Source: Sinonovacula constricta (taxonomy: Eukaryota > Mollusca > Bivalvia > Cardiida > Solecurtidae). Taken from it: a stretch of DNA of 64,000 nucleotides. A model generated the notes under the pieces. It was given only the letters and a program-made list of their open reading frames with translations, searched no databases and was not told where the DNA came from. The translations under genes and the position numbers were made by a program. The stretch lies in contig CM017570.1 in NCBI GenBank assembly GCA_007844125.1, forward strand, positions 51,936,609 to 52,000,608. The letters run 5' to 3'. Every line of letters begins with the position of its first letter. The stretch's first letter is position 1. This document shows positions 55,609 through 64,000 of the stretch, piece by piece.

Positions 55609-55718
55609 GTTCATCGCCGCTTCCCAGCTGCAATCCACTGACGCTCGGAAGGTGTTCCCGTGTTTTGACGAGCCAGCCATGAAGGCGACGTTCTCTGTCA
55701 CGGTAACCCATATGACAG
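55609..55718 (+). CDS. M1 zinc aminopeptidase, coding exon 2
   Basis: These 110 nt encode the end of R285 to part of residue 322. The segment FIAASQLQSTDARKVFPCFD followed by EPAMKATFSVTVTHMTG is the conserved M1 block (DAR, FPCFDEP, K-A-x-F) at the end of the N-terminal beta domain, just before the thermolysin-like domain. The frame is set by the split Arg codon of exon 1. I place the 3' end at ACAG/GTCAGT (55718), which matches the donor consensus well and leaves phase 1. Without splicing the frame reads into a TGA at 55766-55768. The last 32 nt of this exon are the seed of the 40-bp array. GAMEN and HEXXH-(18)-E lie in exons to the right of the window. Exons 1 and 2 give about a third of the usual family length. 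Confidence 0.88.
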
Positions 55719-58700
55719 GTCAGTATGAAGTTCTCTGTCATGGTAACCTATATGACTGGTCAGTATGACGTTCTCTGTCATGGTAACCTATATGACTGGT
55801 CAGTCTGACGTTCTCTGTCACGGTAACCTATATGACAGGTCAGTATGACGTTCTCTGTCACGGTAACCTATATGACTGGTCTGTATGACGTTCTCTGTCA
55901 CGATAACCTATATGACAGGTCAGTATGACGTTCTCTGTCATGGTAACCTATATGACAGGTCAATATGACGTTCTCTGTCACGGTAACCTATATGACAGGT
56001 CAGTATGACGTTCTCTGTCATGGTAACCTATATGACTGGTCAGTATAACGTTCTCTGTCATGGTAACCTATATGACAGGTCAGTATGACGTTCTCTGTCA
56101 TGGTAACCTATATGACAGGTCAATATGACGTTCTCTGCCACGGTAATCTATATGACAGGTCAGTATAACGTTCTCTGTCACGGTAACCTATATGTCTGGT
56201 CATTATAACGTTCTCTGTCATGGTTACCTCTATGACTGGTCAGTATAACGTTCTCTGTCATGGTAACCTATATGACAGGTCAGTATGACGTTCTCTGTCA
56301 CGGTAGCCTATATGACTGGTCAGTATAACGTTCTCTGTCACGGTAACCTATATGACTGGTCAGTATAACGTTCTCTGTCACGGGAACCCATATGACAGGT
56401 CAGTATGACGTTCACTGTCACGGTAACCTATATGACTGGTCAGTCTGACGTTCTCTGTTACGGGAACCTATATGACAGGTCAGTATAACGTTCTCTGTCA
56501 CGGGAACCCATATGACAGGTCAGTATGACGTTCTCTGTCACGGTAACCTATATGACAGGTCAGTTTAACGTTCTCTGTCACGGGAACCCATATGACAGGT
56601 CAATATGACGTTCTCTTTCACGGTAACCTATATGTCTGGTCAGTATAACGTTCTATGTCACGGTAGCCTATATGACTGGTCAGTATGACGTTCTATGTCA
56701 CGGTAGCCTATATGACTGGTCAGTATGACGTTCTCTGTCACGGGAACCCATATGACAGGTCAGTATGACGTTCTCTGTCACGGTAACCTATATGACAGGT
56801 CAGTTTAACGTTCTCTGTCACGGGAACCCATATGACAGGTCAATATGACGTTCTCTTTCACGGTAACCTATATGTCTGGTCAGTATAACGTTCTCTGTCA
56901 CGGGAACCCATATGACTGGTCTGTATGACGTTCTCTGTCACGGTAACCTATATGACTGGTCAGTATGACGTTCTCTGTCACGGTAACCTATATGACAGGT
57001 CAGTATGACGTTCTCTGTCACGGTAACCTATATGTCTGGTCAGTATAACGTTCTCTGTCACGGGAACCCATATGACAGGTCAGTATGACGTTCTATGTCA
57101 CGGTAGCCTATATGACTGGTCAGTATAACGTTCTCTGTCACGGGAAGTAATATGACAGGTCAGTATGACGTTCTCTGTCACGGGAACCCATATGACTGGT
57201 CAGTATGACGTTCTATGTCACGGTAACCTATATGACTGGTCAGTATGACGTTCTCTGTCACGGTAACCTATATGACAGGTCAGTGTGACTTTCTCTGTCA
57301 CGGGAACCTATATGACTGGTCAGTATAACGTTCTCTGTCACGGGAACCCATATGACAGGTCAGTATGACGTTCTCTGTCACGGTAACCTATATGACTGGT
57401 CAGTATGACGTTCTATGTCACGGTAGCCTATATGACTGGTCAGTCTGACGTTCTCTGTCACGGTAACCTATATGACAGGTCAGTTTAACGTTCTCTGTCA
57501 CGGGAACCCATATGACAGGTCAGTATGACGTTCTCTGTAACGGTAACCTATATGACAGGTCAGTATGACGTTCTCTGTAACGGTAACCTATATGACTATT
57601 CAGTCAGACGTTCTCTGTCACGGGAACCCATATGACAGGTCAGTATGACGTTCTCTGTAACGGTAACCTATATGACTGGTCAGTGTGACGTTCTCTGTCA
57701 CGGTAACCTATATGACTGGTCAGTCTGACGTTCTCTGTCACGGGAACCCATATGACTGGTCAGTATGACGTTCTATGTCACGGTAACCTATATGACAGGT
57801 CAGTTTAACGTTCTCTGTCACGGGAACCCATATGACAGGTCAATATGACGTTCTCTGTCTTGGTAACCTATATGTCTGGTCAGTATAACGTTCTCTGTCA
57901 CGGTAACCTATATGACTGGTCAGTATGACGTTCTCTGTCACGGTAACCTATATGTCTGGTCAGTATAACGTTCTCTGTCACGGTAACCTATATGACTGGT
58001 CAGTATAACGTTCTGTGTCACGGGAACCCATATGACAGGTCAGTATGACGTTCTCTGTCACGGTAACCTATATGACAGGTCAGTTTAACGTTCTCTGTCA
58101 CGGGAACCCATATGACAGGTCAATATGACGTTCTCTGTCACGGTAACCTATATGTCTGGTCAGTATAACGTTCTCTGTCACGGTAACCTATATGACTGGT
58201 CAGTATGACGTTCTCTGTCACGGTAACCTATATGACTGGTCAGTATGACGTTCTACGTCACGGGAACCTATATGACTGGTCAGTATGACGTTCTCTGTCA
58301 CGGCAACCTATATGACTGGTCAGTGTGACGTTCTCTGTCACGGGAACCCATATGACTGGTCAGTATGACGTTCTCTGTCACGGTAACCTATTTGACTGGT
58401 CAGTGTGACGTTCTCTGTCAGGGTAACCCATATGACAGGTCAGTATAACGTTCTCTGTCACGGTAACCTATATGACAGGTCAGTATGACGTTCTCTGTCA
58501 CGGTAACCTATATGACAGGTCAGTTTAACGTTTTCTGTCACGGTAACCTATATGACTGGTCAGTGTGACGTTCTCTGTCACGGTAACCTACACGACTGGT
58601 CAGTTAGAGGTTCTCTGTCACGGTAACCTATACGACTGGTCAGTATGACGTTCTCTGTCACGGGAACCTACAATACAGGTCAGTGTAACGTTCTCTGTCA

Positions 58701-61700: not shown

Positions 61701-64000
61701 CCTATATGACTGGTCAGTATGACGTTCTGTGTCACGGTAACCTATATGACTGGTCAGTATGACGTTCTCTGTCACGGTAACCTATATGACAGGTCAGTAT
61801 GACGTTCTATGTCACGGTAACCTATATGACAGTCAGTATGACGTTCTGTGTCACGGTAACCTATATGACTGGTCAGTATGACGTTCTGTGTCACGGTAAC
61901 CTATATGACAGGTCAGTATGACGTTCTGTGTCACGGTAACCTATATGACTGGTCAGTTTGACGTTCTGTGTCACGGTAACCTGTATGATGGTCAGTCTGA
62001 CGTTCTCTGTCACGGTAACCTATGTGACTGGTCAGTATAACGTTCTATGTCACGGTAACCTATATGACAGTCAGTATGACGTTCTGTGTCACGGTAACCT
62101 ATATGACAGGTCAGTATGACGTTCTCTGTCATGGTAACCTATATGACTGGTCAGTATGACGTTCTCTGTCATGGTAACCTATATGACTGGTCAGTATGAC
62201 GTTCTCTGTCATGGTAACCTATATGACAGGTCAGTATGACGTTCTCTGTCACGGTAACCTATGTGACCGGTCAGTATAACGTTCTCTGTCACGGTAACCT
62301 ATATGACTGGTCAGTATGACGTTCTGTGTCACGGTAACCTATATGACTGGTCAGTATGACGTTCTCTGTCATGGTAACCTATATGACAGGTCAGTATGAC
62401 GTTCTCTGTCACGGTAACCTATATGACTGGTCAGTATGTCGTTCTCTGTCACGGTAACCTATATGACTGGTCAGTATGACGTTCTCTGTCACGGTAACCT
62501 ATATGACTGGTCAGTATAACGTTCTCTGTCACGGTAACCTATATGACTGGTCAGTATGACGTTCTGTGTCACGGTAACCTATATGACTGGTCAGTATGAC
62601 GTTCTCTGTCATGGTAACCTATATGACTGGTCAGTATGACGTTCTCTGTCATGGTAACCTATATGACAGGTCAGTATAACGTTCTCTGTCACGGTAACCT
62701 ATGTGACCGGTCAGTATAACGTTCTCTGTCACGGTAACCTATATGACTGGTCAGTATGACGTTCTGTGTCACGGTAACCTATATGACTGGTCAGTATGAC
62801 GTTCTATGTCACGGTAACCTATATGACTGGTCAGTATAACGTTCTATGTCACGGTAACCTATATGACAGTCAGTATGACGTTCTGTGTCACGGTAACCTA
62901 TATGACTGGTCAGTATGACGTTCTATGTCACGGTAACCTATATGACAGGTCAGTATGAAGTTCTGTGTCACGGTAACCTATATGACAGGTCAGTATGAAG
63001 TTCTGTGTCACGGTAACCTATATGACTGGTCAGTATGACGTTCTATGTCACGGTAACCTATATGACAGGTCAGTATGACGTTCTATGTCACGGTAACCTA
63101 TATGACAGGTCAGTATGAAGTTCTGTGTCACAGTAACCTATATGACTGGTCAGTATAACGTTCTCTGTCACGGTAACCTATATGACTGGTCAGTGTGACG
63201 TTCTCTGTCACGGTAACCTATATGACTGGTCAGTGTGACGTTCTCTGTCACGGTAACCTATATGACAGGTCAGTATGACGTTCTCTGTCACGGTAACCTG
63301 TATGACTGGTCAGTATGACGTTCTCTGTCACGGTAACCTATATGTCTGGTCAGTATGAAGTTCTGTGTCACAGTAACCTATATGACTGGTCAGTATAACG
63401 TTCTCTGTCACGGTAACCTATATGACTGGTCAGTGTGACGTTCTCTGTCACGGTAACCTATATGACTGGTCAGTATGACGTTCTCTGTCACGGTTACCTA
63501 TATGACTGGTCAGTATGACGTTCTCTGTCACGGTAACCTATATGACTGGTCAGTATGACGTTCTCTGTCACGGTAACCTGTATGACGGGTCAGTATGACG
63601 TTCTCTGTCACGGTTACCTATATGACAGGTCAGTATGACGTTCTCTGTCACGGTAACCTATATGACAGGTCAGTATGACGTTCTCTGTCACGGTAACCTA
63701 TATGTCTGGTCAGTATAAAGTTCTGTGTCACAGTAACCTATATGACTGGTCAGTATAACGTTCTCTGTCACGGTAACCTATATGACTGGTCAGTGTGACG
63801 TTCTCTGTCATGGTAACCTATATGACTGGTCAGTATAACGTTCTCTGTCACGGTAACCTATATGATGATCAGTGTGACGTTCTCTGTCATGGTAACCTAT
63901 ATGACTGGTCAGTATGACGTTCTCTATCACGGTAACCTATATGACTGGTCAGTATGACGTTCTCTGTCACGGTTACCTATATGACTGGTCAGTATGACGT
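55687..64000 (+). repeat. 40-bp array of exon 2 end plus splice donor, about 208 copies
   Basis: The unit is GACGTTCTCTGTCACGG, TAACCCATATGACAG and GTCAGTAT, 40 bp. The first copy (55687-55726) overlaps 32 nt of aminopeptidase exon 2 and 8 nt of intron 2. The array continues without a break to the window edge. Common variants are CCTATATG for CCCATATG, GACTGGTCAGT for GACAGGTCAGT, CATGG for CACGG, and in the right third TTCTGTGTCACGG and TTCTATGTCACGG. Units of 39 bp (ATGATGGTCAG or ACAGTCAG) occur from 60.5 kb onward. Confidence 0.96.
55719..55724 (+). other. Predicted 5' splice site of intron 2
   Basis: GTCAGT, preceded by ACAG, forms the donor. An alternative GTAACC at 55743 (CATG/GTAACC) is weaker. 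The same GTCAGT context recurs in nearly every 40-bp unit downstream. Confidence 0.7.

What the first reader, a model, noticed from the sequence alone, without database searches (positions are those of the whole stretch)
55687..64000. A splice donor amplified about 208 times: minisatellite grown from an exon-intron junction
Seen directly: the first 40-bp unit consists of the last 32 nt of aminopeptidase exon 2 and the first 8 nt of its intron, and the same unit is then repeated, in the same orientation, to the window edge. Almost every copy keeps GTCAGT behind ACAG or ACTG. Intron 2 would therefore begin with more than 8 kb of RNA carrying a potential U1 snRNP binding site every 40 nt. Possible consequences (inference): donor competition, alternative exon 2 ends, U1 titration, or U1-mediated suppression of premature polyadenylation in a very long intron. 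I know of no described case of this scale.
Basis: partly seen in the sequence, partly recalled or inferred. Interest (0 to 1): 0.92.

Follow-up and report, generated by a model that had tools for sequence, protein, structure and literature searches.

The report
Intron grown from repeated splice junctions
In an aminopeptidase gene of a mollusc, probably a bivalve, the junction where exon 2 meets its intron is repeated about 239 times in a row and fills most of that intron, so the splicing machinery would have to pick the first of some 220 near-identical cut sites to make a working protein; related cases are known from lancelets and humans, but this intron also sits at a place where the gene's relatives in the same genome have none, so it likely moved or arose anew.

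Summary
A 40-bp unit (last 32 nt of exon 2 plus first 8 nt of intron 2) of an M1 glutamyl-aminopeptidase-like gene runs from 55687 to extended coordinate 65243: about 239 copies, 94% of intron 2. At least 221 copies keep GT; only the first leaves the reading frame open. The same gene has a second array (41 bp x 168) at the donor of its zinc-motif exon. A sister gene on another contig has five more within its model and one at its edge, at donors and acceptors; an intron-free 3.25-kb contig encodes a 98% identical protein without array sequence. The kind is known (amphioxus 'mirages', human IFI6). New are the scale, the recurrence in a mollusc, and that intron 2 is the one of 19 introns whose position none of four paralogue models shares; these four have an intron 23-43 nt further on. 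I read it as a junction-seeded minisatellite, predicted to be spliced at its outermost copy, possibly tied to gain or relocation of the intron. Against a general rule: donor motifs are not enriched in arrays genome-wide, and the window's gene alone is not significant (P 0.086). U1 effects are untested.

The parts
17697..18550 (+). Exon 1 (from the first ATG chosen by me) of the M1 aminopeptidase gene, with Peptidase_M1_N match; donor AAAG|GTAACT
   Evidence: Pfam PF17900, E 2.9e-8; spliced alignment (its two small introns inside this open frame were dropped by me)
18551..55608 (+). Intron 1, 37 kb, crowded with other minisatellites
55609..55718 (+). Exon 2 (110 nt, phase 1 at its end); its last 32 nt are the start of the first repeat unit
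   Evidence: spliced alignment; join to exon 3 without a gap in 29 of 35 related proteins
55687..64000 (+). 40-bp junction minisatellite, 208 copies in the window; continues to extended coordinate 65243 (about 239 copies)
55719..55724 (+). First donor, CAG|GTCAGT; the one copy whose use leaves the reading frame open
   Evidence: 1 of 221 GT-bearing copies

Best explanation
Most of intron 2 of this M1 aminopeptidase gene is a minisatellite of about 239 copies of the exon 2/intron 2 splice junction, which likely grew by tandem duplication and unequal exchange and is predicted to be tolerated because the spliceosome uses only the first, exon-bearing donor. Shown: the array and its start inside exon 2, the open gene around it, a second donor-junction array in the same gene, donor and acceptor arrays in paralogues, and an intron-free sequence of a near-identical sister protein without array sequence. 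Inferred: the first duplication spanned the junction; selection holds the coding end of the exon in place, so the copies can spread only into the intron; the 5'-most donor wins, probably because it is transcribed first and completes the 110-nt exon; messages from later donors are frameshifted and would be lost. Inferred with less confidence: intron 2 is not at an ancestral place and junction duplication at an AG^GT site was part of how it arose or moved.
For: Array, exon limits and frame consequence. Second array in the same gene, 41 bp x 167.8 at 68517-75397, starting 11 nt inside the HEIAHT exon. 8 of 176 junctions of five M1 models spanned by arrays, against 2.37, 1.88 and 1.29 expected by random placement at score limits 100, 200, 400 (P 0.002, 0.00025, 0 of 4000). 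A two-copy stage in the contig 6 paralogue, second GT lost. P0121, 98% identical over the 772-residue sister model, on a 3251-nt contig, no gap at the array junctions. 18 of 19 introns share position and phase with at least one of four paralogue models; intron 2 shares with none, and nine of nine paralogous exons run through its place.
Against: No transcript of the window's gene was found among the best 120 proteins. The placement test was made after the cases were seen, and the excess is mainly the contig 18 gene (5 against 1.04, P 0.001); the window's gene alone has 2 against 0.50, P 0.086. Donor motifs are not enriched in arrays genome-wide: 1077 matches against 1290 for the backwards control. 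The acceptor side of intron 2 resembles the spliced junction only weakly. One paralogue (L025) has no intron in the whole stretch, so the neighbouring intron is not general. P0121 comes from an unnamed source, is not 100% identical, and need not carry the arrays in its own genome.
Confidence: 0.65

Rival explanations
1. Ordinary minisatellite noise: in a genome crowded with arrays some start by chance within a unit length of an exon end; splice sites play no part in where arrays begin and intron history is unrelated.
For: About half of the gene span lies in arrays (38631 of 80336 bp); donor motifs are not enriched in arrays genome-wide; the window's gene alone gives P 0.086, and two of five genes have no junction array.
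Against: Pooled over five genes random placement rarely gives 8 (P 0.002 or less); contig 18 alone P 0.001; the most fully array-built intron is the one at an unshared position.
Confidence: 0.25
2. The array is kept by selection as a string of U1 binding sites that protects a long intron from premature polyadenylation or regulates splicing.
For: At least 221 of 239 copies keep GT; in array 2 the donor 9-mer is the second best kept of 33 windows.
Against: In array 1 the donor positions are kept no better than the rest, and most copies carry the weaker CTG|GT; no transcript data.
Confidence: 0.04
3. Assembly artefact: the copy number, or the array itself, is wrong.
For: No reads could be examined; long arrays are hard to assemble.
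Against: 109 distinct units among 239, weak higher-order periodicity (best 0.917 at lag 6, mean 0.901), no N; a second array in the gene and several in other genes.
Confidence: 0.03
4. The copies serve as alternative donors that make protein isoforms, as reported for human IFI6.
For: Donor-like sites recur in line; the IFI6 precedent.
Against: The 40-nt step shifts the frame and 1 of 221 donors, the first, leaves it open; likewise 1 of 158 in array 2.
Confidence: 0.03

Closest known systems
'Mirage' minisatellites of amphioxus (globin, Adh3, TnC, PGBD5 genes; PMC3087553 and PMC3902484, passages seen)
   Different: The globin cases read about have 3-6 units of 150-160 bp; here up to about 239 units, nearly a whole intron of one array, two arrays in one gene, and another phylum.
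Human IFI6 (6-16) minisatellite giving multiple splice donor sites (Turri 1995; only a citing sentence and the title seen)
   Same: A minisatellite whose units carry splice donors at an exon end.
   Different: There downstream units are reported to be used as donors for protein isoforms; here the 40-nt step breaks the frame, so only the first donor is predicted to be productive.
Intron gain or sliding with tandem duplication at AG^GT (near intron pairs in Drosophila, PMC2891723, abstract and one section; review PMC3443670, passages)
   Same: An intron at an unshared position with an AG^GT exon join, 23-43 nt (32 nt for two paralogues) from an intron site of paralogues that this gene lacks.
   Different: Those pairs are defined by distances under 32 nt between orthologues; here paralogues are compared, repeats run to hundreds of copies, and the acceptor side is not clearly exon-derived.

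Membership tests
[quoted passage not shown]
   Array starts 32 nt inside exon 2 and runs into intron 2
Mirage-type junction minisatellite | Many units keep splice signals | tested here: met
   GT in register in 221 of 239 units; AG|GT in 78 of 239
Mirage-type junction minisatellite | Both 5' and 3' boundaries can be involved | tested here: met
   Not in this exon, but acceptor arrays in the contig 18 paralogue
Mirage-type junction minisatellite | Regular splicing is not disturbed | tested here: inconclusive
   Supported for the sister gene by P0121; no transcript for the window's gene
Mirage-type junction minisatellite | Length instability between haplotypes or cells | not testable with these tools
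   One assembly only
Multiple-donor minisatellite (IFI6 type) | Downstream copies give in-frame isoforms | tested here: not met
   1 of 221 donors leaves the frame open, the first
Intron gain by tandem duplication at AG^GT | Intron at a novel position | tested here: met
   Unshared with four paralogue models and absent from nine of nine paralogous exons; orthologues not tested
Intron gain by tandem duplication at AG^GT | Exons join at AG^GT | tested here: met
   ...TGACAG^GTTACA
Intron gain by tandem duplication at AG^GT | Both ends of the intron derive from the duplicated exon segment | tested here: inconclusive
   Donor side yes; acceptor side a 12-of-13 match, best of 19 junctions, shuffled P 0.0065, but 107 of 2961 coding windows score as high, 36 of them over the junction

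The most novel reading that the evidence does not exclude
Intron 2 is an intron built from its own splice junction: reiterated duplication of an exonic AG^GT site created a new intron beside an older one that was then lost, and it went on growing to hundreds of donors in line, a process still at work at splice junctions of this mollusc, with two-copy, few-copy and 200-copy stages side by side in one gene family.
Probability: 0.25. Interest if true: 0.85.

Novelty: new variant of a known kind. Interest (0 to 1): 0.62.

Why it matters
How introns arise and move is an old open question; a review calls tandem genomic duplication the only proposed route shown in vivo (PMC3443670 passage). Junction duplications at 2, 4, 6, 13, 16, 26, 168, 210 and 239 copies in one gene family of one genome would let that route be followed step by step. 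It is also a natural test of how one donor is chosen out of some 220 near-identical ones in line.

Tried and rejected
Coding minisatellite: rejected, no later copy leaves an open frame. Dispersed satellite that landed beside the exon: the junction search found only this array plus one exon each on contigs 10 and 6 (not an exhaustive search). Selection for donors as the cause: the two arrays point opposite ways. Donors as preferred array seeds genome-wide: not supported, 1077 against 1290 overlapping matches. Acceptor-side derivation from the exon: suggestive only. A second GT in each unit (ACG|GTAACC) scores 0.9 against 4.5 for the real donor. Chaperonin genes as an independent sample: 69 matches, but no DNA could be cut out, so the junction count rests on one gene family. 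COX1 to name the species: no match; the nearest named proteins are Mercenaria, Mya and Mactra (77-78% for the sister gene; 59-64% for the window's gene). Dropped rows: aligner exons under 40 nt in models c1a and c6x were left out of the 176 junctions, and the two small introns the aligner put inside exon 1 were dropped; the contig 18 acceptor array at 2924-3593 lies outside its model and is not in the 8. Odds changed in this check: the section on the most novel reading from 0.30 to 0.25 and best explanation set at 0.65, because L025 has no intron in that stretch and because P0121 is not shown to come from this species.

Papers: PMC3087553, PMC3902484, PMC4526556, PMC3618361 and PMC3443670, passages; PMC2891723, abstract, outline and section 8; Turri 1995 not held; Canestro 2002 only as a citation. 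That no mollusc case was found rests on the searches, of which the Lucina paper and the abalone paper were seen as listings only; the library lacks most subscription journals.

Full report
What was checked. The window lies 1.7 Mb from the right end of contig 16 of a 1.22-Gb, 177-contig genome. I fetched 97 kb beyond it and use window coordinates extended to the right. The array is one 40-bp minisatellite from 55687 to 65243, 239.2 copies, 92% matches; the window holds 208.1 of them.

The gene. The first ATG is my choice, and the last exon may be incomplete. Exon 2 is 55609-55718, exon 3 is 65905-66071; intron 2 is 10186 nt, 9525 of them array. The last 661 nt hold a 26-bp array (11 copies by the finder, 65438-65721), which looks more degenerate on both sides by eye. 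The alignment runs without a gap across the exon 2/exon 3 join in 29 of 35 related proteins.

Donors. 221 of 239 units have GT in register; some of the other 18 are only shifted by an indel. The commonest 9-mers are CTGGTCAGT (132) and CAGGTCAGT (72); 78 units have AG|GT. The first copy scores 4.5 on a recalled weight matrix; 32% of the later scored copies reach that. Of 221 donors one, the first, leaves the frame open. I infer, without transcripts, that the first is used.

It recurs. The exon ending HEIAHT (68373-68527) starts a second donor-junction array, 41 bp, 167.8 copies, 68517-75397; again 1 of 158 GT-bearing copies, the first, keeps the frame. Regions with four other M1 gene models were fetched. 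The puromycin-sensitive-aminopeptidase-like gene on contig 18 has five junction arrays in its model: donor 97 bp x 4.2, acceptor 87 bp x 26, donor 48 bp x 209.7, acceptor 64 bp x 6, donor 69 bp x 12.9; and an acceptor array 43 bp x 15.6 at the edge. One contig 1 gene has a donor array (31 bp x 12) at the intron position of the 41-bp array. The other contig 1 gene and the contig 6 gene have none by this test, but in the contig 6 gene the exon 2 donor region is present twice, the second GT lost. In total 8 of 176 junctions are spanned.

More than chance? Placing each array at random within its gene, covering at most half of an exon, gives 2.37 junctions on average at score 100 or more (P 0.002), 1.88 at 200 (P 0.00025) and 1.29 at 400 (0 of 4000). 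By gene at score 100: contig 18 5 against 1.04 (P 0.001); window's gene 2 against 0.50 (P 0.086); contig 1 genes 1 against 0.28 and 0 against 0.11; contig 6 0 against 0.44. The test was made after the cases were seen. Against a general preference for donors, three AGGTAAGT at spacings of 23-53 bp match 1077 times in the genome and the backwards control 1290 times (overlapping matches, not arrays). Both genes with several junction arrays lie within 2 Mb of a contig end, which may simply be where arrays are dense.

Splicing in the presence of arrays. P0121, 98% identical over all 772 residues of the contig 18 model, is encoded on a 3251-nt contig, while the model spans 41.8 kb. It is an intron-free copy, most likely spliced RNA of the same or a very near species; the source is unnamed, and a retrocopy is not excluded. 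It has no gap at the five array junctions (one residue, D for E, differs near one) and contains VGKGT, the exon start in the last copy of the sixth array. Two gaps lie elsewhere, around residues 366-397 of my model. If the arrays are present in that animal, donor arrays are spliced from the first copy and acceptor arrays to the last. No near-identical protein for the window's gene was among the best 120.

Intron history. On a protein alignment 18 of 19 introns of the window's gene share position (within two columns) and phase with at least one of four paralogue models; intron 2 is the exception. Nine of nine paralogous exons run from FPC..DEP through this place to the equivalent of NMP: seven loci, two of them models c1b and c6x, plus c1a and c18. 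The four models have an intron 23, 32, 32 and 43 nt further on, at three aligned positions, and the window's gene has none there. But L025 also has none there, so that intron is not general. This resembles the near intron pairs of PMC2891723, whose limit is under 32 nt. Gain or relocation by junction duplication is plausible; the acceptor end matches the spliced junction only weakly, and no orthologous gene structure could be read.

Known kinds. Amphioxus 'mirages' are the same kind of thing: tandem duplications of exon-intron boundaries, at either boundary, reported not to disturb splicing and proposed as a route to new introns. Human IFI6 is a donor-bearing minisatellite.

Mechanism, with status. 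Shown: junction sequence, orientation, scale, recurrence, frame consequence, unshared intron position among the paralogues read. Inferred: growth by unequal exchange or slippage; exon end held by selection while copies spread into the intron; first-donor choice by order of transcription and exon definition. Speculative: intron gain or relocation through the array; U1 effects.

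Noticed in passing
G000 contig 18:1925001-1975000 (L036-L040), concatenated 10808-20620: A 9.8-kb donor-junction array (48 bp x 209.7) in a puromycin-sensitive-aminopeptidase-like gene, as large as the one in the window; with an acceptor array of 26 copies just upstream.
   Followed up: yes
L004 (contig 6), near 1570-1790: A junction duplicated once (92-nt match), the second copy's GT changed to TT: a possible early stage of such an array.
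   Followed up: partly
window 29321-36980: A 20-bp array of 367 copies within intron 1; with the arrays at 4113-7589, 26292-28684 and 49094-53680 roughly half of the gene span is minisatellite.
   Followed up: no
extended coordinates 102700-114290 (L013-L015): A 39-bp array of 297 copies downstream of the gene, its unit containing a minus-strand donor-like CTTTAAGGTAA; whether a minus-strand exon ends there was not tested.
   Followed up: no
G000 contigs 2, 3 and 5: Several chaperonin exons match twice with equal or nearly equal scores at places 0.2 to 3.5 Mb apart, which may be recent duplications or unmerged haplotypes in the assembly.
   Followed up: no
window 9268-9687 (-) and 44169-44579 (-): Open frames that look by eye like pieces of a transposase-type and a helicase-type protein; no Pfam match.
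   Followed up: partly
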